Origin: Chitinophagaceae bacterium
GTDB taxonomy: Bacteria > Bacteroidota > Bacteroidia > Chitinophagales > Chitinophagaceae
Direction of reading: 5' to 3'
NCBI GenBank assembly: GCA_024643655.1
Contig: JAHEMM010000001.1
Coordinates: 1 to 64,000, forward strand
DNA: 64,000 bases
The notes beneath the pieces were generated by a model that saw nothing but the letters and a program-made list of their open reading frames with translations, ran no database searches and was not told where the DNA came from. Position numbers and translations under genes: made by a program. This document shows, in pieces, positions 36,701-53,092 of the stretch; position 1 is the first letter of the stretch; every line of letters begins with the position of its first letter.

Positions 36701-36909
36701 AATTTGTGAGAAAAGCGAAGATTAATTCTTTGAGAGTTTATATTTCTGCACAAAACCTTTTTTATCATAAAGCTGCAAGTTTCAGAGGATTAAATCCAGA
36801 AGCAAGAAATACATCAAGTCAATATTCAACACCTTTAGTTGATGGCTATCAGAGAGGAGCTTTCCCTGTACAAAAAACATTTGTATTCGGTGTTGACTTT
36901 AATTTTTAA
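33736..36909 (+). CDS. SusC/RagA-family TonB-linked outer-membrane transporter
   Basis: The 1057-residue outer-membrane protein has a signal peptide ending near AVLAQ (residue 21) and a carboxypeptidase-regulatory-like domain (about 24-98). The SusC signature AEVVVIGYGTQKKSSVTGAV (about 104-123) follows, then a plug domain with VDGHPLYEG and DAASAAIYGSRGANGVIIVTT (about 180-235), and then a 22-strand barrel ending in FVFGVDFNF. It imports oligosaccharides using the ExbBD-TonB motor. The susD partner starts 19 bp downstream. The cargo is most likely alginate or glucuronan oligomers released by the flanking lyases. Confidence 0.96.
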   Translation: MKKLQCLLMLLLLAGSAVLAQKKTITGKVTSENGNSPLLGVNILAENQKGGVSTKQDGTYSITVDSKTTTLIFSYVGFAPQTVLIGDKTIIDVVLAPATTTEAEVVVIGYGTQKKSSVTGAVAKYTNDRLEETPNSRLDQALQGKIAGVQVQNISSEAGADPKVQVRGISSVSAGAQPLVVVDGHPLYEGLSFVNMADVQSVEVLKDAASAAIYGSRGANGVIIVTTKSGKANKTKYGVKFSTGFKEAYELYPIMTTTEYTNLLFYEASLRLKDPSITTQPAILNTNERAAYVFEQDYRGGQGTNWQREAIRNANVKNLQMNVSGGNSGVKYYISGGYQNDQGMMYHSEYERFTIKAKVDAQLSKKVKLSFNFNPSYIKRERPSTSYTDFFRLQSTYPVYVDASLIDFVRQNSNFANVQVGDFFQAAMFNGRVYSGLMPDGSLWTTTSSSNPFATSNQSPKSVLDTRKITTNDYRALTSGDLSVNILPGLDFKTMGSAFVRYSSGLDFAKSNSNRAGDVSQGVYTSTLFVDLLSENTLSYNKRIKDHSIDFLAGFTVQKTRIKNEQTTGTNFASDNVTTLNTGTVVLDPLQTFNNTLSRGLLSGLGRVLYSYKDKYLLNATFRADGSSYFGPEKKWGYFPSVSLGWVASKEKFMDNVSWVSNLKLRGSYGATGNNNIQDYLFVDLLYASNYPFGGSVSNGQAISRSILSNPDITWELTNQFNGGIDVALFKNAVSLSLDVYSSKTDKLLLQQATLGFTGVPSFINNIGKVQNKGIEFEITSNNIRRKDFRWSTTANISRTRNEILQLGDEAFLQNLGERNEVYQNKVGAPLIQFFGYKTDGVWVSQDQITASGLTSSIANILVPGGLKIVDIDGNNRIDANDRTVIGNPYPDFIWGITNNFTYKDFDFSFFFQGVQGGSVIGGDANYNETKRYNKNYNSNRWVSPAFPGDGKTPYSTLGLNWMLTDYVVEDASFYALREVLVGYTLPEKFVRKAKINSLRVYISAQNLFYHKAASFRGLNPEARNTSSQYSTPLVDGYQRGAFPVQKTFVFGVDFNF

Positions 36910-36928
36910 TTGTTTAAAAAGACTTAAA

Positions 36929-38479
36929 ATGAAAAAAATACAATTTATAATACTCTTTTTTTACATAGCCTTAAGCTCATGTAAAAAAACAATTGACCTT
37001 TATCCGGAATCAAACTTGAATACGGGTACTTTTTATAGTAATAATGACGAAGTGAAAGCTGGTCTTACAGCATGTTACAATGGAATGCAGCGACCGATAT
37101 TTCGGGAATGGCAATTCACTGAATTACGTTCAGATAATTCTTTTATGGGAAACCCGGGTAGTACGAATTCTTTCAATAGGGATTTAAGTGATCTGGATGA
37201 ATTTATTCCGGCTACTACGCAAGATGCTATTTATCAGTATTGGCTTGATACATATTATAATATACGTAGTTGTAATATTTTGTTGCAAAAATTGGGAGTT
37301 AGTTATGACCCTAATGCTGGTGCTATAAATCTGGCAAGTGTTAATATTCCTATCAGTGATGCAAGCAGAAAGCAATATGCTGGTGAAGCACTTTTCATCA
37401 GAGCTTATCATTATTTTAATTTGGTACGTTTATATGGTGGTGTTTTTTTAGTACATACACCTATATCTCCATTAGAGTCTAAAACAATGAACCGTGCTAC
37501 TGTTGCAGATATCTATAAATTGATTGTTGCTGATTTAACGGCTGCATCAACTTATATGAATAATTTGAAGTTTAGCCAAATTCCAACTGCAGATAAAGGA
37601 AGAACAACATCATGGGCAGCCAAGGCATTATTGGGTAAAGTATACCTTACTCAAAATAAAAAAGCTGAAGCTATTACCGTTTTAGATGATGTCCGTTTGA
37701 ATAGCGGATATGGATTGCAATCATCGTATGCAAATGTTTTTTCTATTACAAATGAACTCAATTCAGAAATCCTTTTTACAATTAGCCATAAAGCTGGTGG
37801 ATTTGGATTAGGTTCTAGTTTTGGAAACGATTTTGGGCCATTAGGAAGTATTGGAGTAATAAATGGTTCACCCAGAGGTTGGAATACACCATCAAGTAGT
37901 ATTGATTCTTTTTATATGACTGGCGATGCAAGAAAAGCTGTAAATATTGGAAGGTATAAGCCAAATCCGGCTTTGCCAGATGAAATTCTTTATGTAAAAA
38001 AATATTTGAATCCTGTTGTCATTACTGATGATGGAGAAGCTGACTGGCCTATTATTCGTTATGCAGATGTTTTATTAATGTTGGCGGAAGCTCAGGGAAA
38101 TACAGGAGCAAGTGTTGGATATATCAGTCAAATTAGAGTAAGGGCTGGGTTGTCTTCGATTACGGGTGCATTTGCTACGACTGCTGCATTTGAAAAAGAA
38201 TTGACTGAACAGAGAAGAGCTGAATTTGCTTTTGAAAATCATCGTTGGTTTGATATGGTAAGATATGGAACGACCCTGGCTAACTTTAATACTTTACAAG
38301 TATTAAAAGATCACTTCGCATATGAATATTTAGCACATTACAGTCAATATACTGCTCCTGTTCCTACTTTATTACAGTTACAGTCAAATGTAATTGCGAA
38401 TAGATTATTATTGCCAATTCCTCAACGTGAAATTGATACCAATACACAATTAGTTATCACTCAAAACCCAGGGTATTAA
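36929..38479 (+). CDS. SusD/RagB-family nutrient-binding lipoprotein
   Basis: The 516-residue lipoprotein is read from the ATG at 36929. An in-frame ATG at 36839 lies inside susC and gives no signal peptide. The lipobox is IALSSC with Cys18. SusD hallmarks are LNTGTFYSNNDEVKAGLTAC near the N-terminus, the helical EALFIRAYHYFNLVRLYGG region (about 155-173), WPIIRYADVLLMLAEA, and ELTEQRRAEFAFENHRWFDM near the C-terminus. It forms the lid over the SusC barrel and binds the glycan at the cell surface. Confidence 0.95.
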   Translation: MKKIQFIILFFYIALSSCKKTIDLYPESNLNTGTFYSNNDEVKAGLTACYNGMQRPIFREWQFTELRSDNSFMGNPGSTNSFNRDLSDLDEFIPATTQDAIYQYWLDTYYNIRSCNILLQKLGVSYDPNAGAINLASVNIPISDASRKQYAGEALFIRAYHYFNLVRLYGGVFLVHTPISPLESKTMNRATVADIYKLIVADLTAASTYMNNLKFSQIPTADKGRTTSWAAKALLGKVYLTQNKKAEAITVLDDVRLNSGYGLQSSYANVFSITNELNSEILFTISHKAGGFGLGSSFGNDFGPLGSIGVINGSPRGWNTPSSSIDSFYMTGDARKAVNIGRYKPNPALPDEILYVKKYLNPVVITDDGEADWPIIRYADVLLMLAEAQGNTGASVGYISQIRVRAGLSSITGAFATTAAFEKELTEQRRAEFAFENHRWFDMVRYGTTLANFNTLQVLKDHFAYEYLAHYSQYTAPVPTLLQLQSNVIANRLLLPIPQREIDTNTQLVITQNPGY

Positions 38480-38512
38480 TTTTAATTGGCGATACACTAA
38501 AAATATCGGGTA

Positions 38513-39406
38513 ATGAAAAAATTGAAATTATATATACTCCTCCTATTTACAGGAGGAGTATGTTTTTCTCAAGAGACAGATACAGTTTATAAGCCGGTTG
38601 AATATCCATCCGGGTTTACTGCAAAAATTGATGTGGTATATACTCAGGTAGATGGCTGGGATGGCCGTATGGATATTTATATGCCCCCAAAAGAAAAAGG
38701 CCCTTCTCCGATAGTCATTAATATTCATGGTGGTGGCTGGAACAAAGGTGTAAAAGAGTCACAAACAGGATATAGTACTTTTTTTAAAAAAGGGTTTGCT
38801 GTAGCAAATATTGAATACCGGCTTACAGGACAAGCAACTGCTCCTGCAGCAATAGAGGACACCAGATGCGCACTGATTTACTTGATAAAAAATGCAAATG
38901 CATTAAACATTGATGTAAATAAAATCGTAATCATGGGCGGTAGTGCTGGTGGTCATTTGGCATTAATGGGTGGATTACTTGGCAATGATCATCGGTTCGA
39001 CGGTAATTGTCCTGGTGTAGAAAATATTAAAGTAGCAGCAATTATTGATAAGTATGGTATTACCGATGTTTGGGATTGGGGATATGGAAAAAATATTACC
39101 AGTAAATCCGCTACAAGATGGTTAGGCGATAAAGCAAAAGATAAAAATTTTGCTGCATCCGTTTCGCCAATTACTTATATCGATAAAAACAGCCCGCCAA
39201 TTTTTATTGTGCATGGCGATGCAGATCCAACAGTTCCTTATCAGCAGTCAGTTGATTTACATAAAAAGCTACTTGATGTTGGCGTGAAGACAGCATTTAT
39301 TACCGTTGAAGGTGGTTTGCATGGTAAGTTTGAAAAAGATAAGAATAGTGAATTGAATAAAGCCATGATTGAATTTATCATGTCGCTACCAGCATTTAAA
39401 AAATAA
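38513..39406 (+). CDS. Secreted alpha/beta-hydrolase, acetylesterase-like
   Basis: The 297-residue protein (signal peptide to about residue 20) is a BD-FAE/esterase-lipase-type hydrolase. The oxyanion-hole motif HGGGW is at residues 72-76, the nucleophile Ser144 is in GGSAGG, the acid is probably Asp236 or Asp238 in VHGDADPTVPY, and the base is His270 in GGLHGKF. In a uronate locus, an esterase of this kind could remove acetyl groups from bacterial alginate or acetylated glucuronan so that the lyases can act. That substrate is inference. It follows susD by 33 bp. Confidence 0.87.
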   Translation: MKKLKLYILLLFTGGVCFSQETDTVYKPVEYPSGFTAKIDVVYTQVDGWDGRMDIYMPPKEKGPSPIVINIHGGGWNKGVKESQTGYSTFFKKGFAVANIEYRLTGQATAPAAIEDTRCALIYLIKNANALNIDVNKIVIMGGSAGGHLALMGGLLGNDHRFDGNCPGVENIKVAAIIDKYGITDVWDWGYGKNITSKSATRWLGDKAKDKNFAASVSPITYIDKNSPPIFIVHGDADPTVPYQQSVDLHKKLLDVGVKTAFITVEGGLHGKFEKDKNSELNKAMIEFIMSLPAFKK

Positions 39407-39411
39407 AAAAA

Positions 39412-40242
39412 TTGTTTCTTCTGAGAGTTTTTATACTTTTTTTATTGTTATCACTTAATGTAGATTGTAATAAATCCACTACTACAAGTGTTATAGTACC
39501 GCCAGCTTCCAAAGCTGTTATTCTAAACGCAGATGGGCCTGGTAATACATATGAATTAATTAATAGTAAACTGGCCCCCGGATTTGACGTAGTGGAAAAT
39601 CCGGAATGTGTACATCCTTCTTTTGGTAGGCATATTACAGAAGTTTTCGATGCTGATTTAAATAGTAATGTTTTCGAATTTTTTAGTCATGTTAATGAAG
39701 ACAATGACCGGTGTATTAATTTTGACCGGCAACGAATAGAGATAAAAACATATGACCAATCACCAGACAGTTTGAAAGGAACGTTGGGTGAAACAATAAC
39801 TTATAAGTGGAAGTTTAAAATGCCGGTTGGGTTTAAACCATCTACAAGTTTTACGCATATTCATCAAATAAAACCAGTGAATGGAGATGATGGTAACCCA
39901 TTATTTACATTAACAGTAAGAAAGGCAACTCCAAATAAAATGGAACTAATACACGATAACACAACCAAAGTTGCAATTGTTGATTTATCGTTATTCAGTG
40001 GGGTATGGGTAGAAGCAACTGAAATCATTAAAGTGGGCGCAAATGGAACGTATGCTATGCTGATAAAAAAAGTAAATGATGGAACAACTATTCTAAGTTA
40101 TAGCAATAATAATTTAATGACCATTAGACCAAGTAATGACTTTATAAGACCAAAATGGGGGATTTATAGGAGTTTGAATAGTCCGGGAGATCTAAGGGAT
40201 GAATCCATTCGTTTCAATGCTTTTAGTATTGAAGAGCAGTAA
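39412..40242 (+). CDS. Lipoprotein with jelly-roll polysaccharide-lyase-like motifs
   Basis: The protein is about 276 residues from a TTG at 39412. An ATA at 39403 would instead give the archetypal signal start I-K-K-L-F-L-L, and no ATG exists in this frame near the start. The leader ends in a lipobox at LNVDC (Cys19). The mature part contains RQRIEIKTY (107-115), HIHQIKP (149-155) and RPKWGIYRS (247-255). These echo the R-x-E, QIH and KxGxY active-site triad of jelly-roll lyases such as PL7, PL13 and PL20. I cannot place it in a numbered family. It may be a surface lyase or binding protein of the same locus. Confidence 0.65.
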   Translation: MFLLRVFILFLLLSLNVDCNKSTTTSVIVPPASKAVILNADGPGNTYELINSKLAPGFDVVENPECVHPSFGRHITEVFDADLNSNVFEFFSHVNEDNDRCINFDRQRIEIKTYDQSPDSLKGTLGETITYKWKFKMPVGFKPSTSFTHIHQIKPVNGDDGNPLFTLTVRKATPNKMELIHDNTTKVAIVDLSLFSGVWVEATEIIKVGANGTYAMLIKKVNDGTTILSYSNNNLMTIRPSNDFIRPKWGIYRSLNSPGDLRDESIRFNAFSIEEQ

Positions 40243-40319
40243 TCAATTTTTGATTATTACTATGCATATATAGTATACTTTTTAATTCACTGTTTTTTTT
40301 AAATAAATTTAGAAAAGAA

Positions 40320-41081
40320 ATGATCAGTTTTAAATTAGACAATAAGCTTGCATTAGTTACAGGTTGTAGCAGAGGTATTGGGATGGCCATTGCAATAGAA
40401 ATGGCTGAAGCAGGAGCTGATATTATTGGTGTAAGTAATAGCATGCCAGCAGCAGGAAGCAATGTTGCAAAAGCAGTAGAAGCCACTGGAAGAAAATTCT
40501 ATCCTTACGCTGCAGATTTTTCTAAAAGAGAATCACTATACGCTTTTATTAATCAGGTAAAAGCAGATCATCCTACAATTGATATACTAATTAATAATGC
40601 AGGTCATATTATGCGAAAGCCAGCTGCAGAACATCCTGATGAATACTGGGATGCAATCATTGATATTAATTTGAATGCTCAGTTTATTTTAACCCGTGAG
40701 ATTGGAAAACGCATGATTGAGCAAAAAAGTGGAAAAATAGTTTTCACTTGTTCATTGTTAAGTTTTCAGGGAGGAATAAATGTTCCGGGTTATGCTGCAA
40801 GTAAAGGAGCAATTGCTTCCGTTTTAAAATCTTTTGCTAATGAGTGGGCGTCATATGGAGTTACAGTAAATGGTATTGCACCAGGATATATCGCAACAGA
40901 TAATACGCAACAGTTAAGAGATGATCCGGAAAGAAGTGCAGCCATTTTATCCAGGATTCCTGCCAATAGATGGGGGAAGCCAGAAGATTTAACAGGTGCT
41001 TATGTTTTCTTATCTTCATCAGCCTCTGACTATATCAATGGAACAATTCTAACTGTTGATGGAGGTTGGATGGGAAGATAA
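40320..41081 (+). CDS. kduD: 2-dehydro-3-deoxy-D-gluconate 5-dehydrogenase
   Basis: The 253-residue SDR has VTGCSRGIGMA for nucleotide binding (about residues 14-24), NNAG near 90, and catalytic Ser with YAASK (about 158-162). Its C-terminus is PANRWGKPEDLTGAYVFLSS and TVDGGWMGR, characteristic of KduD. The enzyme reduces 2,5-diketo-3-deoxygluconate to 2-keto-3-deoxygluconate. kduI follows 50 bp downstream, supporting the assignment. It is a different SDR from the one at 24311. Confidence 0.92.
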   Translation: MISFKLDNKLALVTGCSRGIGMAIAIEMAEAGADIIGVSNSMPAAGSNVAKAVEATGRKFYPYAADFSKRESLYAFINQVKADHPTIDILINNAGHIMRKPAAEHPDEYWDAIIDINLNAQFILTREIGKRMIEQKSGKIVFTCSLLSFQGGINVPGYAASKGAIASVLKSFANEWASYGVTVNGIAPGYIATDNTQQLRDDPERSAAILSRIPANRWGKPEDLTGAYVFLSSSASDYINGTILTVDGGWMGR

Positions 41082-41131
41082 AAAGCAGAGCTTTTAAATA
41101 CTTTTATTCTTAAAATTAAAATACTAAAAAA

Positions 41132-41962
41132 ATGCAAGTAAGATTTCAAAATAGCCCAAAGGAAACAAGTCAAATGACAACACAACAACTTAGAGAAAAT
41201 TTTTTAATTGAAGGGCTAATGCAACCAGGTACGATTCAGTTAACCTATTCACATTATGACAGAATGATTGTTGGCGGAGTAGTGCCAACTTCTTCAGCAA
41301 TCGTATTGCCAAAAGAAGAAGAATTAAAAGCAAATTTCTTTTTGGAAAGAAGAGAAATGGGTATAATAAACGTTGGTGGAAAAGGAACAGTTACTGCCGA
41401 TGGAGTAGCCTATGAAATAGAAAAGTTAGAGTGTGTTTATCTTGGAAGAGGCACAAAAGAAGTTAGCTTTAGCAGTAGTTCGGAGAAAGAACCAGCTCAT
41501 TTTTATTTATTATCTGTTCCGGCGCATCAAACTTATCCAAACAAAAAAATGACAAAGGAAGAAGCAGCGCCGGTTAATATGGGCGATATTTCAACTTCAA
41601 ACAAAAGAACGATTTATAAGTATATTCATAATGATGGTATTCAAAGTTGCCAGTTGGTAATGGGGTTAACTACATTGGATACGGGTAGTGTATGGAATTC
41701 TGTTCCTCCACATACGCATACCAGAAGAATGGAAGCATATTTTTATTTTGATCTGGATGCTGCTCAAAGAGTAATGCATTTTATGGGAGAACCACAAGAA
41801 ACAAGACATCTTGTTATGGCAAATAACGAAGCAGTTCTTTCAGCGCCATGGAGTATGCATTTTGGTGTAGGAACAGCAAACTATGGTTTTATATGGGGCA
41901 TGGCTGGTGAGAATAAAGAATTTACAGATATGGATCCTGTTCCAGTTGCAACAATTAAATAA
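41132..41962 (+). CDS. kduI: 5-dehydro-4-deoxy-D-glucuronate isomerase
   Basis: The 276-residue bicupin isomerase has zinc ligands in PPHTHTRRMEAYFYF (His194, His196, Glu201) and His243 in SAPWSMHFGVG. These sit two positions before the published E. coli KduI set His196/His198/Glu203/His245. It interconverts DKI (5-keto-4-deoxyuronate) and DKII, the step between KdgF and KduD. Full length. It lies between kduD and kdgK. Confidence 0.95.
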   Translation: MQVRFQNSPKETSQMTTQQLRENFLIEGLMQPGTIQLTYSHYDRMIVGGVVPTSSAIVLPKEEELKANFFLERREMGIINVGGKGTVTADGVAYEIEKLECVYLGRGTKEVSFSSSSEKEPAHFYLLSVPAHQTYPNKKMTKEEAAPVNMGDISTSNKRTIYKYIHNDGIQSCQLVMGLTTLDTGSVWNSVPPHTHTRRMEAYFYFDLDAAQRVMHFMGEPQETRHLVMANNEAVLSAPWSMHFGVGTANYGFIWGMAGENKEFTDMDPVPVATIK

Positions 41963-41994
41963 TTGATTCATTTGCCCAAGAAAGTTGAGCAAAC

Positions 41995-43014
41995 ATGAAA
42001 AAAATTTTATGTTTTGGTGAATTACTTTTAAGGCTTCCACCAGCCAATGGAGGTGATTGGTTACGCACCAATCAAATGCCTGTTTTTATTGGTGGTGCAG
42101 AATTGAATGTAGCTACTGCTCTTGCATTATGGAAAATGCCAGTAAAATATTTTACAGCATTACCTGATAATGTTATCGCAAGAGATATTAAAGATTATCT
42201 GGAGCAGAAGAATATTGACACTTCTTCAGTTATATACAGTGGTGAACGGGTCGGACTTTATTATTTGCAGAAAGGAGCAGATATGAAAAGTGCCGGTTCT
42301 GTTTTCGATAGAAAAAACTCTTCGTTCGCTACATTAGGAACAGGGAATGTTAACTGGGATGAAGTTTTAGAAGATGTATCCTGGTTGCACTTCAGTGCTA
42401 TTGCACCAGCTGTTAGCGAAACTGCTGCTGCGCTTTGTAAAGAAGCTTTGGAAGCTGCGAGTAAAAAAAATATTACTATCTCAGTTGACTTGAATCACCG
42501 AAAACTATTATGGCAATATGGTAAGCCGGCAGCTGAAATAATGACGGATCTTGCGAAATATTGTACTGTAATTATGGGCAATGTTTGGTCAGCTAATTCT
42601 CTGTTAGGGATCCCGGTTGATGAAAGAATGCATGATAATCCTTTAAAAGAAAATTATTTGATGAATGCTACGAAAACTGCAAATGATATTTTTCAGAAAT
42701 TCCCTAGATGCAAATGGGTAGCCAATACTTTTCGATTTGATGCTACCGACAATAAGATTGAATACTACGCAGCATTAAATACAATTGGCTTGCAAAAAGT
42801 GTCGCCTCTTTTTAAAACAGCATCAGTTGTAGAACGAGTTGGTAGCGGTGATTGTTTTATGGCCGGGTTAATATATGGCATTGCTAATGATGCTGACCCC
42901 CAAACAATTATAAGTACAGCAGCTGCAGCAGCATTTGGTAAGTTGCAGGAAATTGGAGATGCAACCAATAATTCAATGGCAGATATTAATTTGATTTTGA
43001 ATAAGTACATGTAA
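41995..43014 (+). CDS. kdgK: 2-keto-3-deoxygluconate kinase (PfkB family)
   Basis: The 339-residue ribokinase-fold protein has an N-terminal substrate-binding GGAELNVATALALW (about residues 33-46) and the catalytic anion-hole motif RVGSGDCFMAGL with Asp286. Placed after kduI, it is best read as KdgK, making 2-keto-3-deoxy-6-phosphogluconate. The aldolase (Eda) that would finish the pathway is not in the window. Its stop codon lies inside a strong hairpin. Confidence 0.9.
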   Translation: MKKILCFGELLLRLPPANGGDWLRTNQMPVFIGGAELNVATALALWKMPVKYFTALPDNVIARDIKDYLEQKNIDTSSVIYSGERVGLYYLQKGADMKSAGSVFDRKNSSFATLGTGNVNWDEVLEDVSWLHFSAIAPAVSETAAALCKEALEAASKKNITISVDLNHRKLLWQYGKPAAEIMTDLAKYCTVIMGNVWSANSLLGIPVDERMHDNPLKENYLMNATKTANDIFQKFPRCKWVANTFRFDATDNKIEYYAALNTIGLQKVSPLFKTASVVERVGSGDCFMAGLIYGIANDADPQTIISTAAAAAFGKLQEIGDATNNSMADINLILNKYM

Positions 43015-43035
43015 TTCAAATTACACGTACTTATT
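43000..43035 (+). terminator. Hairpin over the kdgK stop codon, probable end of the uronate operon
   Basis: Arms 43000-43015 and 43020-43035 are complementary at 15 of 16 positions with a 4-base loop TCAA. The kdgK TAA (43012-43014) lies inside the left arm. A T-rich stretch follows from about 43047. The geometry fits an intrinsic terminator whose stem begins in the coding sequence. Confidence 0.6.
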
Positions 43036-43207
43036 CAACAAGTTGCAATTTTATTTTCAATTCTTTGAATTATTCTTTCAGTTTATTATACGTAAATAGT
43101 TTTTTATTTTTTACTATCTTTAAGTAAATAGATTTCCATAACTACAGGAACTATTTTGGGGTACACAGTCACTTTTACAGTGTGTTTATAATTCAAAAAA
43201 TAATTCA

Positions 43208-44572
43208 ATGATTGTAGCCTCTACTGATAAGAAGCATGTCTATAAATCATTTGCCTTGCACAATTTTAGGCAAATACCACAAATATCTCGTCTTTCAGAC
43301 GAACAGATAAAGGATATTGATGTGGTAGGCCATGTGTTGCCTTTTAAATCCAATAATTATGTTATAGATGAATTGATTAATTGGGATAATGTACCCGATG
43401 ATCCAATTTTTACGTTGACATTTCCCAGAAAAGAAATGCTTACAGACGATCATTATAAAAAAATGGAAGCAGCACTTGATAGCGGTGCTTCAAAAAGTGA
43501 AATAAAAAAAGTTGCAAATGAAATCAGGATGGCTCTCAATCCACATCCTGCAGGTCAGTTAGAGCACAATGTGCCAATGATTGAAGGTCATAAGTTGACA
43601 GGAATGCAACATAAATACAGAGAAACAGTTTTGTTTTTTCCTAGTCAAGGACAAACCTGTCATGCTTATTGTAGTTTTTGTTTTCGGTGGCCACAGTTTG
43701 TTGGAATGGATGAATGGAAGTTTGCAATGAAAGAAACGGAATTACTTATCAAGTATCTTCAGCAACATACAGAAGTAACAGATCTGCTATTTACCGGAGG
43801 TGATCCAATGATTATGAAAAATAAAATATTTGCTTCTTATATTGATGCTATTCTTGATGCAGATATTCCTAATCTTCAAACTATAAGAATTGGGACTAAG
43901 TCATTAGGTTATTGGCCGTATAAATTTATTACAGATGATGATGCTGATGAAACTTTACAAACTTTTGAGAGAATAGTAAATAGCGGAAAAAATCTAGCTA
44001 TAATGGCACACTTTAATCATCCGGCCGAATTATCTACAGCTGCAGTGAAAGAAGCAATTAAAAGAGTAAGAGCAACAGGTGCACAAATAAGAACACAATC
44101 ACCAATAATGAGGAATATTAATGACGATCCTGATGTATGGTCTACGATGTGGCGGCAACAGGTAAATCTCAATTGTATCCCTTATTATATGTTCGTAGCA
44201 AGAGATACTGGGGCGCAACATTATTTTAAATTGTCGTTGGTAGAAGCCTGGAATATTTTTCAAAAGGCGTATCAAAATGTCAGTGGCGTTTGTCGTACTG
44301 TTCGAGGACCAAGTATGAGTGCAACGCCGGGTAAAATTCAAATGCTGGGGGTAAGTGAAGTAAATGGTAAAAAGATTATGGCATTTCGTTTTTTACAGGC
44401 AAGAAATCCAGACTGGGTAGCAAAACCTTTTTTTGCTGAATATAATGAAGATGCTATTTGGTTAGATGAATTAATGCCAGCTTTTGGAGAGGAAAAGTTT
44501 TTTTTCGAAAATGAATTAAACGAAATATTTAATGAGCATATCAACAAATCAGAAATTAGCAACTTCGAATGA
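43208..44572 (+). CDS. Lysine-2,3-aminomutase-like radical SAM protein
   Basis: The 454-residue protein carries a KamA-like cluster motif, CHAYCSFCFRWPQF, with Cys151, Cys155 and Cys158 binding the [4Fe-4S]-SAM cluster. TGGDPM at 196-201 is the GGE-type SAM motif. SMSATPGKIQML near 370-380 keeps a GKI like the PLP-Lys region (GGGGK) of lysine 2,3-aminomutase but lacks the Gly run. It is longer than true KamA (about 415 residues) and has a different sequence after the Cys motif. Substrate unknown. The next gene, a PLP aminotransferase, starts 41 bp before its stop, so the two are translationally coupled. Confidence 0.85.
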   Translation: MIVASTDKKHVYKSFALHNFRQIPQISRLSDEQIKDIDVVGHVLPFKSNNYVIDELINWDNVPDDPIFTLTFPRKEMLTDDHYKKMEAALDSGASKSEIKKVANEIRMALNPHPAGQLEHNVPMIEGHKLTGMQHKYRETVLFFPSQGQTCHAYCSFCFRWPQFVGMDEWKFAMKETELLIKYLQQHTEVTDLLFTGGDPMIMKNKIFASYIDAILDADIPNLQTIRIGTKSLGYWPYKFITDDDADETLQTFERIVNSGKNLAIMAHFNHPAELSTAAVKEAIKRVRATGAQIRTQSPIMRNINDDPDVWSTMWRQQVNLNCIPYYMFVARDTGAQHYFKLSLVEAWNIFQKAYQNVSGVCRTVRGPSMSATPGKIQMLGVSEVNGKKIMAFRFLQARNPDWVAKPFFAEYNEDAIWLDELMPAFGEEKFFFENELNEIFNEHINKSEISNFE

Positions 44573-45881
44573 AGTAATCGAAAATAGGAGTACAACCAAA
44601 AATCTTTTTTTGAATCCCAATGTAATAGGATTAAAAGAATCTCCTACGTTACGAATTAATCAGCATTGCAAAGAATTAGCTGAGAAAGGGAAACATATTT
44701 ATAAACTTGGTTTGGGCCAATCTCCTTTTCCGGTTCCAGAACCTGTTGTAAATGCTTTACGATTATATGCGCCTCAAAAAGATTATTTGCATGTTCAAGG
44801 TTTGCCGGAACTACGTGAAGCGGTAGCAAAATTTCATCAAAAAAAAGATGGAGTCGATATTTTGTCACAAAATGTCATCATTGGTCCTGGCTCTAAAGAA
44901 TTATTGTTTTTACTACAAATGGTTTTTGATGGTGAAGTGATTATACCAAGTCCAAGTTGGGTTTCTTATTTACCACAGGCGAAAATTATAGGTAATACAA
45001 TTCATGTAATTCAAACGCAAGCAAAAGATAAATGGCGATTATTACCTGATCAGTTGGAAGATTTCTGTAAGAAAAATAATAAGTCAAACAATAACCCCTA
45101 TTTACTTATTCTCAATTATCCTGGCAACCCAGATGGTATTACTTATGGGGATGAAAGTGTGAAACAGCTAGCTGCAACTTGCAGAAAAAATAATATTTAT
45201 ATTTTATCTGATGAAATCTACGGACAACTACATCATGAAGGGAAACATGTTTCAATTGCAAAATATTACCCTGAAGGAACAATTATTAGTTCAGGTTTGT
45301 CGAAATGGTGTGGGGCTGGTGGTTGGAGGTTAGGAACTTTTTCATTTCCTCCCAATCTACATTGGTTAATGGACGCAATGGCGGCTGTTGCCAGTGAAAC
45401 ATATACGTCTGTTAGTGCACCTATACAATATGCAGCAATACAAGCTTTTTTATGTGGTGCAGAAATAGAAAATTATTTATGGCATGTAAGAAAAATTCTT
45501 TCACTACTTGGAAATCAAACAGCTTCAATACTTAAAAAGGGAAATATTAGCGTTAACGACCCAACAGGAGGCTTCTATCTTTTTTTAGACTTTTCAACGC
45601 TACAAGAAAAATTGCATAAAAGAGGAATAGTAAATGGAAGTATTTTATGTGACCGGTTACTGGAAGATTGTGGCGTGGCCATTCTTCCAGGAGTTGATTT
45701 TAACAGGCCGGAAAATGAGTTGTCTGCCCGTTTATCTTATGTTGATTTTGATGGTGCAAAAGCATTAACTGCAAGCTATACAATTCCATTGCATGAAAAA
45801 TTACCTAACGATTTTCTACATCAATATTGCAATAATGTAATTGAAGCAGCAGAAAAAATAGCAGCATGGTCAAATGAATAA
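44532..45881 (+). CDS. Class I/II PLP-dependent aminotransferase paired with the radical SAM protein
   Basis: The 449-residue fold-type I aminotransferase has NYPGNP with the cofactor Asn region (195-200), Asp227 and Tyr230 in SDEIYGQ, Lys258 in SGLSKWCGAGGWRLG as the PLP Schiff-base Lys, and the carboxylate-binding Arg266. An extra ~25-residue N-terminal tail precedes the normal start of the fold; its codons overlap the 3' end of the previous gene. It probably transaminates a substrate or product of the aminomutase-like partner. Its own specificity cannot be assigned. Confidence 0.87.
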   Translation: MSISTNQKLATSNEVIENRSTTKNLFLNPNVIGLKESPTLRINQHCKELAEKGKHIYKLGLGQSPFPVPEPVVNALRLYAPQKDYLHVQGLPELREAVAKFHQKKDGVDILSQNVIIGPGSKELLFLLQMVFDGEVIIPSPSWVSYLPQAKIIGNTIHVIQTQAKDKWRLLPDQLEDFCKKNNKSNNNPYLLILNYPGNPDGITYGDESVKQLAATCRKNNIYILSDEIYGQLHHEGKHVSIAKYYPEGTIISSGLSKWCGAGGWRLGTFSFPPNLHWLMDAMAAVASETYTSVSAPIQYAAIQAFLCGAEIENYLWHVRKILSLLGNQTASILKKGNISVNDPTGGFYLFLDFSTLQEKLHKRGIVNGSILCDRLLEDCGVAILPGVDFNRPENELSARLSYVDFDGAKALTASYTIPLHEKLPNDFLHQYCNNVIEAAEKIAAWSNE

Positions 45882-45896
45882 CTTCCAATTGAACAC

Positions 45897-47006
45897 TTAA
45901 GCTGTTGATTTTTTTGTAATCTTTATTTTAAAAAAGTACCTGGCGTTTTTTAAAAACACTGTAAGCAAAAGCATTAGAGCAGTTAAAATAAATAATCCTA
46001 TTTCTGGCTTAAAATTTATTGACCAATAAGCTTCCATTAAAATAAATGCATGCAGAAAGCATATAACTTTAGCTGTAAATGCATGACTAAATCCCTGATT
46101 GGTAAGCAAGTGGTGAATATGCGTTTTGTCTGGCGAAAATGGGGATTTCCCATTCCATATTCTCATTGTAAACACTCGAATCGTATCAAACACAGGAATA
46201 AATACAATTCCTAGAACAAATACCGGGGCATGTGGTAAAACCGGATTTGCCGAAGTTATATTTACCTCCATAAGTCGTATGCATAATACAGCAATTACAA
46301 AACCAAGTACTAGTGAACCGGTATCACCCATAAAAATTCTTGCAGGGTTTAAATTAAAATACATAAATGCAAGAATACCTCCTGCCAGAGCGAAAGCTAT
46401 AAGTGCAGTATTTACATCACCAGACATACTTAAAAAAAATCCAAGTGTAACAAGACTCATAAATCCAATTCCACCTGCAAGCCCATCAATTCCATCAATT
46501 AAATTAAAAGCATTAGTAATACCTACAACGGCTAATATTGTAATAGTATATTGCGCCATCACAGGCAATTCATCGATACCAAATAGACCATCAAAGGAGG
46601 AAATTCTTATTCCTGATAATGCAATAATTGTTGCAAGAGCAAATTGAATAACGAACTTATATTTTGCTGAAAGATCTTTCAGGTCATCCATCATCCCTAA
46701 TCCAAATAGTACAGCAATTGAAAAGAAAAAACTGACTTGCTCTATACTGTTACTAAATGGGAACCATAAAATAAGTGACAGTAGCATTCCTGCAACAATT
46801 GCAATTCCTCCCATCGTTGGGATTGGCGAGCTATGTTCTTTCCTTGCATCAGGCACATCATACAAACTATATTTTCTTATGAGTGTAATAATTGGTGGAA
46901 TCGTAATTAGCGTAACAACAAATGCTGTAAAAAAACAAAGTAAAGCAAACTTATACTCACGAAATAGCAAATCAAATTGCAATAATTGCAGTAGGTGGTT
47001 TTTCAT
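45897..47006 (-). CDS. MraY/WecA-family undecaprenyl-phosphate glycosyl-1-phosphate transferase
   Basis: The 369-residue membrane protein has about ten or eleven helices. Motifs are DDLKDLSAKYKF (about 107-118), NAFNLIDGIDGLAGGIGF (about 164-181), FMGDTGSLVLGF (about 224-235) and the DKTHIHHLL loop near residue 290. This pattern is WecA/TagO-like, transferring a sugar-1-phosphate (often GlcNAc-1-P) to undecaprenyl phosphate to start a surface glycan. No other glycan-assembly genes are adjacent. It converges with the aminotransferase gene across 15 bp. Confidence 0.92.
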   Translation of the reverse strand: MKNHLLQLLQFDLLFREYKFALLCFFTAFVVTLITIPPIITLIRKYSLYDVPDARKEHSSPIPTMGGIAIVAGMLLSLILWFPFSNSIEQVSFFFSIAVLFGLGMMDDLKDLSAKYKFVIQFALATIIALSGIRISSFDGLFGIDELPVMAQYTITILAVVGITNAFNLIDGIDGLAGGIGFMSLVTLGFFLSMSGDVNTALIAFALAGGILAFMYFNLNPARIFMGDTGSLVLGFVIAVLCIRLMEVNITSANPVLPHAPVFVLGIVFIPVFDTIRVFTMRIWNGKSPFSPDKTHIHHLLTNQGFSHAFTAKVICFLHAFILMEAYWSINFKPEIGLFILTALMLLLTVFLKNARYFFKIKITKKSTA

Positions 47007-47296
47007 TTTTCCTGATTTTATTAAACAGGGCTTGGATTTCTAAATACAATATAGAAGACTATTTAGGAAACGACAATAGCCGGTTTAAATTTTTTACATT
47101 ATCAAGCTTTTCCCCTTTAAGGTTTGCAGGAATTCGGTAATAACTTAGGATATTTGCTAAAGCATAACCGTAATTTTCACATGTGTAAATTTATTCCAAA
47201 CTAGTACTTATCTCATCCTATTCACACATACTATCCAGTCCAATCGAATACCTGAAAGGTGTTGGGCCGCAAAAAGCAGATCTTTTCAAAAAAGAA

Positions 47297-49321
47297 TTGA
47301 AGATTTTTACATTTGGCGATTTATTAGAACATTTTCCATTTCGCCATATCGATCGAACGCAAATTAATTTTATTAATGAGATAACACCTCAAATGGATTT
47401 TGTGCAGGTGGCTGTTCTGTTAGTTAGTCTTGAGGTTGTTGGCCAACGTCAGAGTAAAAGAATTGTAGCGGAAGTAAAAGATAAAACCGGAACCATGGAG
47501 CTTACCTGGTTTCAGAGTCTGAGCTGGGTACAAAAATCATTAGAGGTTGGTCAATCTTATCTGGTGTATGGCAGAATAAGTTTTTATAATGGGCAGCCGC
47601 AAATAGTTCATCCAGAAACAGAATTGTTGGCCAGAGATCAACAAACGGGTAAAAATTATCTGGAACCTGTTTATTCTACTACTGAGAAATTGAAGGCAAG
47701 AGGATTAAGTGGAAGACAAATTGGAAAACTTACTCAGCTATTGATGGGGATGGTTCATGAAAGAGATATACCGGAAATTCTTCCATCAACTATTCTTCTT
47801 CAATTAAATCTGATCAGTCGTTTTAATGCTTATCGGCAAATACATTTTCCGCAAGACAGCAATGAATTTAACGCTGCTGTCAAGCGATTAAAATTCGAAG
47901 AATTATTTCTTGCACAATTAAGAATGAACATGTTGCGGAGCCAGCGACATCGATTTTCAAAAGGAGTAATTTTTGAAAAAGTAGGAGAGCTGTTTAATAC
48001 TTTTTATAATCAACATCTTCCTTTTCAATTAACGGGTGCACAGAAAAGAGTAATAAAAGAAATAAGAAATGATACAGCAACTGGAAAACAAATGAACAGG
48101 CTCTTACAAGGTGATGTTGGCAGTGGAAAAACAATTGTGGCTATTCTATGTATGTTATTAGCCGCAGATAATGGTTTTCAGTCGTGCCTGATGGCGCCTA
48201 CAGAAATTCTGGCGCAACAACATTTTCATACTATTTCAGGGTTATTGGAAAACATGGATATGCCGGTATCAATATTAACCGGTTCAACAAAAGTAGCAGC
48301 CCGTAGGAAAATATTAAAAGAACTGAAAGAAGGTACATTGAAAATTTTAATTGGTACACATGCCGTAATTGAAGAAGTGGTTCAGTTTGACAAACTTGGT
48401 ATCGTTATAATTGATGAGCAACATCGATTTGGAGTAGCACAAAGGGCTAAGCTTTGGCAAAAAGCTGTTGTTCCCCCACATATTCTGGTTATGACAGCAA
48501 CACCAATTCCAAGAACCTTGGCTATGACCGCATATGGCGATTTGGATTATAGTGTAATTGATGAATTGCCGCCTGGCCGGCAACCAGTAACTACAGTTCA
48601 TCGTTATGAATCACAGCGAAGTAAGGTAATGACTTTTATAAAATCAGAGATTGAAAAAGGAAGGCAGATATATATCATCTTCCCACTTATTGAAGAAAGT
48701 GCAAAGCTTGATTATGAGAATCTGATGCAAGGCTATGAGAATGTTAAAGCTTATTTTCCTGAGCCAAAATACTGGATAAGTATGGTTCATGGTAAGCAGC
48801 CGGCAGCACAGAAGGAACTAAATATGAAAAGATTTATTGATAAAGAAACGCAAATTATGGTGTCAACAACTGTTATTGAGGTTGGTGTAAATGTGCCAAA
48901 TGCTACTGTAATGGTAATTGAGAGTACTGAGAAGTTTGGCTTATCCCAGTTACACCAGTTAAGAGGCAGAGTAGGCCGGGGAGCGGATAAAAGTTATTGT
49001 ATCCTTTTATCAGGATCTAAATTAGGGAATGATGCCCGAGAACGGATTGGTATTATGACTTCTACATCTAATGGCTTTGAAATTGCTGAAAAGGATCTTG
49101 AATTAAGGGGACCGGGTGATATAGATGGTACAAAACAAAGTGGTGTGTTAAACTTTAAGTTGGCTAGTTTAGTCCAAGATCGGCAAATGCTGGAAGTTGC
49201 AAGAAATATTGCTGAAAGTTTACTAGAAAAAGATCCAGAACTGCTTTCGGCAGAAAATTTGCTGTTAAACAAGTTCCTTAAAAAGAAGAAAGATGGAGTA
49301 TTGTGGAGTAAAATCTCATAA
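47297..49321 (+). CDS. recG: ATP-dependent DNA helicase RecG (coding very likely extends upstream of this TTG)
   Basis: From the TTG at 47297 the protein has 674 residues with an OB wedge domain, Walker A GDVGSGKT, IIDEQHRFG (DEQH box), TATPIPRT, and the helicase C-terminal motifs QLRGRVGRG. RecG remodels stalled forks and Holliday junctions. In the same frame upstream, 47231-47296 encodes LSSPIEYLKGVGPQKADLFK, the conserved RecG N-terminus, and the frame is open back to 47189. No ATG, GTG or TTG occurs there; only ATT 47189, ATC 47210 and ATA 47228 could start it. So the true start is either a rare codon or was lost. Confidence 0.9.
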   Translation: MKIFTFGDLLEHFPFRHIDRTQINFINEITPQMDFVQVAVLLVSLEVVGQRQSKRIVAEVKDKTGTMELTWFQSLSWVQKSLEVGQSYLVYGRISFYNGQPQIVHPETELLARDQQTGKNYLEPVYSTTEKLKARGLSGRQIGKLTQLLMGMVHERDIPEILPSTILLQLNLISRFNAYRQIHFPQDSNEFNAAVKRLKFEELFLAQLRMNMLRSQRHRFSKGVIFEKVGELFNTFYNQHLPFQLTGAQKRVIKEIRNDTATGKQMNRLLQGDVGSGKTIVAILCMLLAADNGFQSCLMAPTEILAQQHFHTISGLLENMDMPVSILTGSTKVAARRKILKELKEGTLKILIGTHAVIEEVVQFDKLGIVIIDEQHRFGVAQRAKLWQKAVVPPHILVMTATPIPRTLAMTAYGDLDYSVIDELPPGRQPVTTVHRYESQRSKVMTFIKSEIEKGRQIYIIFPLIEESAKLDYENLMQGYENVKAYFPEPKYWISMVHGKQPAAQKELNMKRFIDKETQIMVSTTVIEVGVNVPNATVMVIESTEKFGLSQLHQLRGRVGRGADKSYCILLSGSKLGNDARERIGIMTSTSNGFEIAEKDLELRGPGDIDGTKQSGVLNFKLASLVQDRQMLEVARNIAESLLEKDPELLSAENLLLNKFLKKKKDGVLWSKIS

Positions 49322-49425
49322 TCTGAAGGATTTAATTGAACAGGATAGAAATTATTACAATGCTTAGACATTTCTTAACACAAGTTTTCGATCCTTTTCT
49401 CAATATTTATTGTTAATTTAAGAAC

Positions 49426-52400
49426 ATGTTTCCTCCCATGAAAATATTAATTGTCTTTTTTGCAACCCTTATTATTTCTGCTGAATTGATTGCTCAGGGC
49501 AATATTGAATTCATAGAAAATAAAGGTCAATGGGATAGCCGTGTTCAGTATATGGGAAAAGTCAGTAACGGTGCTTTTTTCCTCCGAAATGATGGTGGGT
49601 TTTCAGTGTTGCAGTATAATCCTGAAGATTATGCTAATCTAGCCCGATTTAGACACGGTCTTAATCCGGATGGATCACCTGTAAAAGCTAATGATAAACT
49701 TACGGTTAGGTCACACAGCTGGGATGTAAATTTTGTTGGGGCTTCTCAGAACATGAAAACAATTGGTCAAAAAGCAATAACAACTTACAATAACTATTTT
49801 ACTGGTAGTGATCCAACAAAATGGGCGACTGAATGTAAAATATTTCAAGCGGTTACTTTGGAAAATGTATATCCAAATGTGGATGTTCGTTATTATACCA
49901 GTAATGGTTACTTGAAATATGATATCGTTGTGAAACCAGGCGCAGATATATCGAAAATCGCTTTGCGATATGATGGTGTTGAAAAATTACAAATAAAGAA
50001 TAAAGAGCTATTGGTTCGTACTTCTATTGGAGATATGAAAGAGTCTTCACCATACACTTATCAAACAGATGTACAAGGTAAAAAAGAAGTACAGTGTAAA
50101 TATGTCGTAAAAGATAATGTAATCCGATTTGATGTCAAAGAGTATGATCCAACCAAGACGTTAATCATTGATCCGGTCATTGTCTTTTGTTCGTTTTCAG
50201 GTAGTCTTTCCGATAACTGGGGGTACACAGCAACTTACGGACCTGATGGAAGTATGTATGCAGGTGGTATCGTTTTTGGAGAAGGGTTTCTTGTGTCACC
50301 CGGAGCTTATCAAACTACTTTTCAAGGAGCAGGGCAGCCATTAGGTGTAGATATTGGTATTATCAAACTTTCTCCTGATGGATCGAATCGTATTTATGCC
50401 ACTTATATTGGTGGTAATGGTGATGAACAACCACATAGCTTAATAGTCGATCCGCAAGGTAATTTGATTTTAGCAGGAAGAACAAACTCTCCAAGTTTAG
50501 GTAATAATGCATATCCATTAAAAAATCCAATAACTGATACTATTGGGCCAAGAGGCGGCTACGATATTGTAGTTACGAAGCTTAATGCAACAGGTACTAA
50601 TATTATTGGTTCAGTACGAATTGGTGGTAGAGGAAATGATGGTTTAAATATTGCTGATACCAGAAGTGGTATAAATTCATTGGTTAGAAACTATGGTGAT
50701 GATGGCAGAAGTGAAGTGATATTAGATGCAGCTGGAAATATTTATGTAGCTTCTTGTACACAGTCTTCCGATTTCCCAACATCAACTACTGCATTTCAGC
50801 GCAACACAGGTGGGCAACAGGATGGAGTAGTATTAAAGCTTAACTCCAATTTAAGTGCATTATTGTTTTCAAGTTATTTGGGTGGTGAAGCTAATGATGC
50901 TGCATATGTACTTTCTATTGGGCCTGGTGGTGATATTTATATAGCAGGAGGAACTCACAGTAAAAATTTTATTGGAGATCATTCTGGTACAATTGGACCA
51001 GCTAATATCCCGAATGCAGCAGGCGACTCGACTATAGATGGATTTGTAGCAAGAATTAATAATAGTGGTACGTCCATTATTAAATCAACCTATATCGGAA
51101 CTAATGGAGTAGATCAGATATATGGATTAAAATTCGACAGATTAGGTTTTCCATATATAACTGGACAAACAACTGGTGCCTGGCCGATTACTCCAGCCGG
51201 TATTCAAACCTTTGGTAGCTCCTCTGGAAAGCAATTTATTGCAAAACTACGACCTGATTTATCGGCCTATATTTATTCTACAGTCTTTGGTACTGCTTCA
51301 GCAACACCTAATATTTCGCCAACTGCATTTTTGGTTGATAGATGTGAAAATGTTTATGTTTCGGGATGGGGTGGTTTTTTGGGTAGTGCTAATGTATTTA
51401 ATAGTGCGGGTACTGTAGGACTTCCTGTAACCCCGGATGCATTTAAAGGCCCTGCTACAGACGGGAAAGATTTTTATTTTATTGTAATAAGAAAAGATGC
51501 TACATCGCAACTATTTGGCAGTTTCTTTGGAGAAAATAATTCAGCTGCACAAATGGGATTTGATCATGTGGATGGAGGTACTAGCAGGTTTGATGAAAAT
51601 GGAGTCATCTATCAGGCTATCTGTGGCAATTGCAAATTAGGTTCGGGCTCAGCTCCTTTATATCCTACTACACCTGGTGCATGGTCAACAACCAATAACT
51701 CGAATAACTGTAATCTTACCATGTTGAAAATTGCTATGAACCTTGCAGGTGTTTCTGCTAATGTACAATCTTCTATAAATGGTGTGCCAAAAGATACTGC
51801 AGGTTGTGTGCCACTTACTGTTGATTTTATTGATACAGTAGGCACAGCACAGAGTTATGAATGGGATTTTGGAGACGGTACTGGTACAGTAACGACGCCT
51901 ACTCCAAATGTTTCACATACATTTACTGCTATTGGTAATTTTATTGTACGTCTCATTGCAATTGATCCTAATACATGTAATATACGGGACACTTCATTTA
52001 TTACTATTAGGGTTGGAGACCTGGAAGTTATACCAGATTTTAATCCCGTAAAGCTTAATCCATGCGATTCATTCAAATATCGGTTTGATAATCTTTCTAT
52101 TGAACCACCTTCTAAGCCTTTTGGTCCGCAATCATTCATTTGGGATTTTGGTGATGGAACACCAAGAATTCAAACAGGGGGAGGTCCGGTAATTCATAAT
52201 TATGCTGGTCCGGGAACGTATAATGTAAAATTGATTTTGCCAGATACCAGTTATTGTAATGCGCCCGATTCGGTAGTTAAGCCATTAAGTGTTGCCAGCA
52301 ATGTAAAGGCCAGTTTTACTACGCCTTCAACAGGTTGTTTACAATACAATGCGGTATTTAAAAATACATCACTGGCGGGCCAAACCTGGCTATGGGATTT

Positions 52401-53073: not shown

Positions 53074-53092
53074 AAGGTTTCAAATTTTGAAC

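What the first reader, a model, noticed from the sequence alone, without database searches (positions are those of the whole stretch)
43208..45881. Overlapping radical SAM aminomutase-like protein and PLP aminotransferase: candidate undescribed pathway
The radical SAM protein looks like KamA around its CHAYCSFC cluster and GGDP motif, but is longer, changes the residues after the cluster and replaces the GGGGK PLP segment with ATPGK. The aminotransferase gene overlaps its end by 41 bp and adds a unique N-terminal tail. A two-gene unit joining 1,2-amino migration with transamination could make or break down a beta-amino acid or related compatible solute. Neither substrate is known.
Basis: partly seen in the sequence, partly recalled or inferred. 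Interest (0 to 1): 0.65.

Follow-up and report, generated by a model that had tools for sequence, protein, structure and literature searches.

The report
Glutamate aminomutase paired with PLP enzyme
Two overlapping bacterial genes probably move the amino group of glutamate to the next carbon and then take it off, which would be an unrecognised way of turning glutamate into acetoacetate; the first enzyme belongs to a widespread family, also found in ammonia-oxidising archaea, that databases label as a lysine enzyme.

Summary
In detail: a 454-aa KamA-like radical SAM ORF (43208-44572) overlaps a 449-aa class I aminotransferase ORF (44532-45881) by 41 bp. The radical SAM protein is not a lysine 2,3-aminomutase: it keeps the cluster cysteines, one carboxylate-binding Arg and the PLP lysine, but both lysine-binding aspartates are gone, one replaced by an Arg invariant in 78 of 78 sequences. 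It belongs to a separate clade found in Bacteroidota, Nitrosopumilus-type archaea and other phyla. Four contexts point to glutamate -> beta-glutamate: a second, divergent glutamine synthetase beside the gene in archaea; a macrolactam-type cluster with a clade member and a related PLP gene; the aminotransferase occurring almost only with the mutase (10 of 11 genomes); and acetoacetyl-CoA synthetase beside that aminotransferase in three genomes. Best reading: glutamate -> beta-glutamate -> 3-oxoglutarate/acetoacetate -> acetoacetyl-CoA. Shown: gene anatomy, clade, residues, co-occurrence. Inferred: substrate, product, direction.

The parts
43208..44572 (+). CDS of KamA-like radical SAM, PLP-dependent aminomutase (454 aa); proposed glutamate 2,3-aminomutase
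   Evidence: ORF; TIGR00238 120.7 bits, below cut-off; AF2 model pLDDT 87.3, best fold 2a5h Z 29.6, rmsd 4.0, 334 residues
43658..43681 (+). CxxxCxxC [4Fe-4S]/SAM motif, CHAYCSFC (C151, C155, C158)
   Evidence: three Cys invariant in 78 of 78 clade sequences
43685..43687 (+). R160, aligns with Arg134 of lysine 2,3-aminomutase (alpha-carboxylate binding; role recalled)
   Evidence: alignment to 2a5h; R in 78 of 78 and in 5 of 5 KamA-type proteins
44201..44203 (+). R332, in place of Asp293 of lysine 2,3-aminomutase (lysine binding; role recalled)
   Evidence: alignment to 2a5h; R in 78 of 78 clade sequences, D in 5 of 5 KamA-type proteins
44294..44314 (+). R363, R366 and S369; S369 stands where KamA-type proteins have the second lysine-binding Asp (Asp330; recalled)
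   Evidence: R363 77, R366 74, S369 73 of 78; KamA-type proteins read I/V, F and D there
44321..44335 (+). ATPGK with PLP lysine K376 (44333-44335)
   Evidence: K376 in 78 of 78; aligns with the lysine of GGGGK in 5 KamA-type proteins
44532..44572 (+). 41-bp overlap of the two CDS
   Evidence: also 41 bp in G032
44532..45881 (+). CDS of class I PLP enzyme (449 aa); proposed beta-glutamate aminotransferase (or decarboxylating relative of IdnL3/PlmJ)
   Evidence: PF00155 155 bits; best solved relatives are T. thermophilus aspartate aminotransferase chains; 178 bits to the PLP gene of a macrolactam-type cluster
44646..44648 (+). T39; with K122 (44895-44897) aligns with T16 and K101 of T. thermophilus AspAT (acidic side-chain recognition, recalled)
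   Evidence: alignment; T39 in 17 of 18, K122 in 18 of 18 sequences
45303..45305 (+). K258, PLP lysine of the aminotransferase
   Evidence: alignment; invariant in 18 of 18 sequences

Best explanation
The first gene encodes a radical SAM/PLP glutamate 2,3-aminomutase of a clade distinct from KamA and from the Clostridium-type model TIGR04368. It binds glutamate to PLP on K376, makes a 5'-deoxyadenosyl radical at the [4Fe-4S] cluster, and shifts the amino group from C2 to C3, giving beta-glutamate (3-aminopentanedioate). R160 holds the alpha-carboxylate; R332 (perhaps with R363/R366) holds the side-chain carboxylate in place of the two lysine-binding aspartates. The second gene encodes a class I PLP enzyme that takes the amino group off beta-glutamate. 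The product, 3-oxoglutarate, loses CO2 easily to give acetoacetate; or the enzyme itself releases the carboxylate, as IdnL3 does. Acetoacetate is then activated by acetoacetyl-CoA synthetase, or in this genome by a 3-oxoacid CoA-transferase, and cleaved to acetyl-CoA: a short glutamate-to-acetyl-CoA route. Shown: anatomy, clade, residues, co-occurrences. Inferred: substrate, product, direction, every reaction.
For: (a) Pocket: R332, K376 and R160 each in 78 of 78, S369 in 73 of 78, against D and D at the 332 and 369 columns in 5 of 5 KamA-type proteins. (b) Archaea: a glutamine synthetase lies near the mutase on the same strand in 13 of 27 archaeal loci, and one more locus has it split into two ORFs (L127); the 7 tested genomes with this arrangement each have two GlnA over cut-off, the 2 tested without it have one. 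The two GS types are 44% identical on average. (c) In Streptomyces NZ_CP108009.1 a 47%-identical mutase and a PLP gene of the same subfamily lie among type I PKS genes with an adenylation enzyme closest to 5jjq and a peptidase closest to 3wmr. The published incednine route is glutamate -> beta-glutamate -> 3-aminobutyrate (PMC11284099, PMC9230918, passages); the pretilactam table lists a 419-aa PLP aminotransferase gene next to a 450-aa aminomutase gene (PMC6631532, passages). (d) The aminotransferase is in 11 of 296 genomes of the phylum, 10 of them with the mutase (p 5e-10); acetoacetyl-CoA synthetase is in 9 of the 11 against 25 of the other 285 (p 6e-8), and is the neighbouring gene in G118, G279 and G226. 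(e) T39 and K122 are kept in the aminotransferase.
Against: I saw no assay of any clade member; [quoted passage not shown] The protein scores far below TIGR04368 (95.7 against 650 bits). The window's own genome has no acetoacetyl-CoA synthetase; its CoA-transferase is a class-wide gene (65 of 67 carriers are in its class), so that half is weak. 22 of 32 mutase genomes lack the aminotransferase, so the product must have other fates. The Fisher values ignore shared ancestry. Residues of the C. difficile enzyme are recalled, not tested. Completeness of the archaeal genomes was not told, and the two with a single GS are the smallest. Early NMR evidence argued against a glutamate aminomutase in methanogens (PMC1224877), which are other organisms.
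Confidence: 0.55

Rival explanations
1. The mutase is a glutamate 2,3-aminomutase, but here beta-glutamate (or 3-aminobutyrate) is an end product: an osmolyte, or a building block of a secondary metabolite. The class I enzyme is a beta-glutamate beta-decarboxylase like IdnL3.
For: The class I enzyme scores higher with the macrolactam-cluster PLP gene (177.6 bits) than with the best solved class I enzyme (140 bits). Clade members lie beside NRPS-like genes (by eye in L043 and L073; annotated in Streptomyces NBC_01431), in a PKS cluster and beside AMP-binding and carrier-protein genes in Rhodococcus. beta-Glutamate is a known solute (PMC1224877).
Against: The window's pair has a PfkB-type kinase gene upstream and a convergent gene downstream; no PKS or NRPS gene was seen by eye in the ORFs of 34000-54000. 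The aminotransferase-acetoacetyl-CoA synthetase link points to breakdown.
Confidence: 0.25
2. The mutase acts on another acidic amino acid (2-aminoadipate, cysteate, phosphoserine or similar) and the aminotransferase on its beta-isomer.
For: R332 only suggests an acidic group. In L074 a 32%-identical relative with the same arginines is followed by 3-oxoacid CoA-transferase A and B, a class III aminotransferase and a 3-oxoadipyl-CoA thiolase, which would suit 2-aminoadipate.
Against: The glutamine synthetase link and the macrolactam route both suggest glutamate; acetoacetate follows from beta-glutamate, not from beta-aminoadipate.
Confidence: 0.12
3. An ordinary lysine 2,3-aminomutase (KamA/AblA) or EpmB with an unrelated aminotransferase next to it by chance.
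For: Plasmid records call clade members 'lysine 2,3-aminomutase'; overall fold like 2a5h.
Against: Neither lysine-binding Asp is present; scores are below the KamA, AblA and EpmB cut-offs; separate from KamA-type proteins in the tree; the aminotransferase occurs with the mutase in 10 of 11 genomes.
Confidence: 0.03

Closest known systems
Incednine IdnL4/IdnL3 and pretilactam PlmK/PlmJ (macrolactam 3-aminobutyrate starter pathway)
   Same: Mutase (PlmK 450 aa) plus PLP enzyme; a macrolactam-type cluster (NZ_CP108009.1) carries a 47%-identical mutase and a class I enzyme of the same subfamily.
   Different: There the pair serves a polyketide cluster; here no such cluster is seen around the pair, and orthologues of the class I enzyme sit beside acetoacetyl-CoA synthetase. 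IdnL4, IdnL3, PlmK and PlmJ sequences themselves were not available to compare.
Lysine 2,3-aminomutase KamA/AblA (2a5h)
   Same: Fold (Z 29.6), CxxxCxxC, R160/Arg134, PLP lysine.
   Different: The two lysine-binding Asp read Arg and Ser; below the family cut-offs; 454 against 416 residues.
Clostridium-type glutamate 2,3-aminomutase (Eam, TIGR04368)
   Same: Proposed reaction; recalled replacement of the same two Asp by Lys and Asn.
   Different: 95.7 bits against a cut-off of 650.
beta-Glutamine synthesis by glutamine synthetase in Methanohalophilus portucalensis
   Same: A GS acting on beta-glutamate (PMC1224877, passages), as proposed for the archaeal mutase-GS unit.
   Different: For methanogens that review reports NMR evidence against an aminomutase as source of beta-glutamate.
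Thermus thermophilus aspartate aminotransferase (1bjw)
   Same: Class I enzyme; PLP lysine and T16/K101 equivalents kept.
   Different: Own subfamily that goes with the mutase; substrate proposed to be a beta-amino diacid.

Membership tests
Lysine 2,3-aminomutase (KamA/AblA) | [4Fe-4S] CxxxCxxC and PLP lysine | tested here: met
   78 of 78 each
Lysine 2,3-aminomutase (KamA/AblA) | two Asp binding the lysine side chain (Asp293, Asp330; roles recalled) | tested here: not met
   R332 and S369; D and D in 5 of 5 KamA-type proteins
Lysine 2,3-aminomutase (KamA/AblA) | curated family cut-off | tested here: not met
   TIGR03820 106.1 of 525.4; TIGR00238 120.7 of 199.2
EpmB (EF-P beta-lysylation) | curated family cut-off | tested here: not met
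   TIGR03821 97.1 of 369.3
Glutamate 2,3-aminomutase, Clostridium type (TIGR04368) | curated family cut-off | tested here: not met
   95.7 of 650 bits
Glutamate 2,3-aminomutase, Clostridium type (TIGR04368) | basic/polar residues at the two Asp sites (Lys, Asn; recalled) | tested here: inconclusive
   R and S here; no Clostridium sequence was compared
Glutamate 2,3-aminomutase, any clade | converts L-glutamate to beta-glutamate | not testable with these tools
   needs an assay
Macrolactam-type mutase (IdnL4/PlmK) | similarity to a mutase from a PKS cluster with beta-amino acid adenylation enzyme and VinJ-type peptidase | tested here: met
   47% over 411 residues, listed residues shared except S369 (V there); that 5jjq is IdnL1 and 3wmr is VinJ is recalled
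Macrolactam-type mutase (IdnL4/PlmK) | sequence similarity to IdnL4 or PlmK itself | not tested
   I had no access to these sequences
Class I aminotransferase | PF00155 domain, PLP lysine, substrate Arg | tested here: met
   155.3 bits, cut-off 19.7; K258 and R400 in 18 of 18
beta-Glutamate beta-decarboxylase (IdnL3) | same subfamily as the PLP gene of a macrolactam cluster | tested here: inconclusive
   31% identity, 177.6 bits, above the best solved class I enzyme; IdnL3 itself not compared

The most novel reading that the evidence does not exclude
A large clade of radical SAM glutamate 2,3-aminomutases, spread over bacteria and ammonia-oxidising archaea and often annotated as lysine 2,3-aminomutase, makes beta-glutamate a common metabolic branch point: archaea amidate it to beta-glutamine with a dedicated second glutamine synthetase; actinomycetes turn it into 3-aminobutyrate for macrolactams; and Bacteroidota such as this one break it down through 3-oxoglutarate and acetoacetate to acetyl-CoA, a glutamate catabolic pathway that I found in no paper listing.
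Probability: 0.4. Interest if true: 0.82.

Novelty: new variant of a known kind. Interest (0 to 1): 0.62.

Why it matters
If true, a gene family that records label 'lysine 2,3-aminomutase' would be re-assigned to glutamate, ammonia-oxidising archaea would gain a testable beta-glutamine pathway and a role for their second glutamine synthetase, and a short glutamate-to-acetoacetate route would be added to metabolism. The listings of my literature searches showed no paper on such a route or on the archaeal mutase-GS unit; only listings and some passages were seen, and the library is open-access only.

Tried and rejected
Rejected: a conserved two-gene operon as the rule (adjacent in 7 of 38 mutase genomes; near in 3 of 80 named loci, one of them on opposite strands); the N-terminal tail of the aminotransferase as a feature; loss of the PLP site. 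SCOT in place of acetoacetyl-CoA synthetase looked perfect in the 15 aminotransferase genomes (6 with SCOT over cut-off and no synthetase, 9 without SCOT over cut-off), but SCOT is a class-wide gene (65 of 67 carriers in the window's class), so I give it little weight. A Bacteroidota promoter pattern was at chance (4 found, 4.5 expected, none upstream of the pair), and sigma-70 and terminator scans were at chance. The AF2 model of the aminotransferase was poor (pLDDT 61.6, four sequences) and was not used. The tree is a quick one, rooted at the midpoint, with a long-branch warning that covers L074, A1r5 and L009. Conserved neighbours of the mutase, mainly in one Bacteroidota family (a YbaK-like 155-aa protein, a NifU-like protein, prolyl-tRNA synthetase; names by eye), look like housekeeping synteny.

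Rows dropped before counts: G077 (broken), G162 (partial), G108 and G119 (fragments) are not among the 32 mutase genomes, which include the window's own; three loci with an in-frame stop (L096, L100, L104) were left out; the truncated aminotransferase of G005 was left out. The aminotransferase cut-offs differ: E 1e-60, 1e-100.
Full report
WHAT IS THERE. Two ORFs on the + strand, 43208-44572 (454 aa) and 44532-45881 (449 aa), overlap by 41 bp. Upstream, 193 bp away, ends a row of sugar-use-like genes (SDR, KduI/IolB-type protein, PfkB kinase); downstream a convergent gene ends 15 bp away.

THE MUTASE IS A CLADE OF ITS OWN. Scores fall below every KamA-type cut-off shown: TIGR00238 120.7/199.2, AblA 106/525, EpmB 97/369, Clostridium-type glutamate 2,3-aminomutase 96/650. 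The one solved sequence relative is lysine 2,3-aminomutase 2a5h. A good AlphaFold model (pLDDT 87.3) has 2a5h as best fold, Z 29.6, rmsd 4.0, 334 residues, against 11.5 for the next entry. Relatives over nearly the full length occur in 32 of 296 sampled genomes of the phylum, the window's own included (49-72% identity in the others), and up to 83% within the genus. In a quick tree of 114 rows the five KamA-type proteins stand apart on a branch with full SH-aLRT support (midpoint root, long-branch warning).

THE POCKET. In 78 clade sequences (77 of the 80 loci plus the window; three with an in-frame stop left out) the three cluster cysteines, R160, R332 and K376 are invariant; R363 is found in 77, R366 in 74, S369 in 73. 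R160 and R332 align with Arg134 and Asp293 of 2a5h. That alignment ends before Asp330; S369 is in the column where five of five KamA-type proteins have their second Asp, and R332 is where they have the first. The roles of these residues in lysine 2,3-aminomutase are recalled. From memory, C. difficile glutamate 2,3-aminomutase has Lys and Asn at the two sites; its paper (PMC1945111) is not held and a search for a passage found none. A side chain with a carboxylate is the natural reading. The 'ATPGK' segment keeps the PLP lysine in register.

CONTEXTS THAT SUGGEST GLUTAMATE. (1) Archaea: in 13 of 27 archaeal loci a type I glutamine synthetase lies within four genes of the mutase on the same strand, in 10 of them as the next ORF; one more (L127) shows it split into two ORFs; one locus without it (L110) ends at the mutase. 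One was scanned: TIGR00653 508 bits against 429. The seven tested genomes with this arrangement each hold two glutamine synthetases over cut-off; the two tested without it hold one (completeness not told). The two types are 44% identical on average (79% and 69% within types), with two fixed Gly-to-Ala changes in the GSG loop. Glutamine synthetase makes beta-glutamine from beta-glutamate in Methanohalophilus portucalensis (PMC1224877, passages). (2) Macrolactams: in Streptomyces sp. NBC_00334 a 47%-identical mutase and a class I PLP gene lie among type I PKS genes, beside an adenylation enzyme whose best solved relative is 5jjq (619 bits) and a peptidase whose best is 3wmr (481 bits) (that these are IdnL1 and VinJ is recalled, so the macrolactam label is an inference). 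[quoted passage not shown] The pretilactam paper speaks of seven genes for 3-aminobutyrate, and its table lists a 419-aa PLP aminotransferase gene beside a 450-aa aminomutase gene (PMC6631532, passages). (3) The window's aminotransferase (E at most 1e-100) is in 11 of 296 genomes, 10 of which carry the mutase (one-sided Fisher 5e-10). (4) Where it lies apart from the mutase, its neighbour is an acetoacetate-CoA ligase in 3 of 7 genomes: G279 and G118 (34 and 22 bp downstream, same strand) and G226 (divergent). That ligase is over cut-off in 34 of 296 genomes, 9 of 11 with the aminotransferase and 25 of 285 without (6e-8). Among the 15 genomes of family f35 named, the two aminotransferase carriers are the only ligase carriers. 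These tests do not correct for shared ancestry, and (3) and (4) share one gene.

THE PARTNER. The class I enzyme resembles aspartate aminotransferases, keeps the PLP lysine and R400, and keeps T39 and K122, aligned with residues that recognise the acidic side chain in the Thermus enzyme (roles recalled). It scores 178 and 163 bits with the PLP genes next to the mutase in the Streptomyces PKS cluster and in Amycolatopsis, more than with the best solved enzyme (140); the Streptomyces one scores 161-212 with full-length window-type enzymes and at most 117 with solved ones. One PLP subfamily thus goes with the mutase in Bacteroidota, in a record titled Zoogloeaceae (L151) and in actinomycetes, but not always: 2 of the 8 plasmid regions opened have it (the region carries no annotation).

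PATHWAY. beta-Glutamate deaminated at C3 gives 3-oxoglutarate, which loses CO2 readily to acetoacetate (general chemistry). Acetoacetate-CoA ligase then fits as the next step. The window's genome lacks that ligase but has a 3-oxoacid CoA-transferase A subunit over cut-off, which is a class-wide gene (65 of 67 carriers). Only gene content, residues and co-occurrence are shown; every reaction is inferred.

AGAINST. I saw no enzymatic proof for any member; 22 of 32 mutase genomes lack the aminotransferase; the pair is adjacent in 7 of 38 mutase genomes; the mutase also sits beside NRPS genes (L043 and L073, by eye, with a CmlA-type hydroxylase in L073; Streptomyces NBC_01431 as annotated), so the fate of its product varies. 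A relative at 32% in L074 is followed by CoA-transferase subunits, a class III aminotransferase and a 3-oxoadipyl-CoA thiolase, which would suit 2-aminoadipate, so other acidic substrates are possible in the wider group.

VERDICT. The finding is real and part of something larger than a stray pair: a glutamate 2,3-aminomutase-like family with several likely fates. The chemistry is of a known kind and a comparable pair exists in antibiotic clusters; the catabolic use proposed here and the archaeal glutamine synthetase link appear new as far as the searched listings go.

Noticed in passing
L119, L113, L117, L136, L132, L109, L155 and other archaeal loci: A second, divergent glutamine synthetase lies near the mutase in Nitrosopumilus-type archaea; the two tested genomes without this arrangement have a single one. 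Candidate beta-glutamine synthetase.
   Followed up: partly
L074:7758-13341: Five-gene run: distant mutase (531 aa, 32%), 3-oxoacid CoA-transferase A and B, HemL-like class III aminotransferase, 3-oxoadipyl-CoA thiolase; could be a 2-aminoadipate to 3-oxoadipate route. In 296 sampled genomes only its own carries this mutase type; the other matches are the window's clade at 34-38%.
   Followed up: partly
L043:1-9293 and L073:3-9115: Mutase clade members downstream of NRPS-like genes (by eye) and a protein that in L073 matches the CmlA-type diiron hydroxylase, with a TauD-type oxygenase in L073; a beta-amino acid building block is possible.
   Followed up: partly
L233:7047-22015 (Rhodococcus sp. 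DK180 plasmid): Mutase clade member in an unfamiliar cluster with ATP-grasp, AMP-binding, carrier protein, SidA-type monooxygenase, cupin and class I tRNA-ligase-like genes.
   Followed up: no
window 36839-43014: Row of genes upstream of the pair: SusD protein, BD-FAE esterase, a 276-aa protein without Pfam match at E 1e-5 (39412-40242), SDR, KduI/IolB-type protein and PfkB kinase.
   Followed up: partly
window genome G000: Only a weak match to type I glutamine synthetase (41.7 bits), so the organism presumably uses another glutamine synthetase type.
   Followed up: no
L230:7975-20179 (Amycolatopsis sp. AA4 plasmid): Mutase and class I PLP gene sit tail to tail amid CoA ester lyases, MaoC dehydratases, a CoA transferase and an amino acid dehydrogenase: possibly a catabolic or precursor-supply island.
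   Followed up: no
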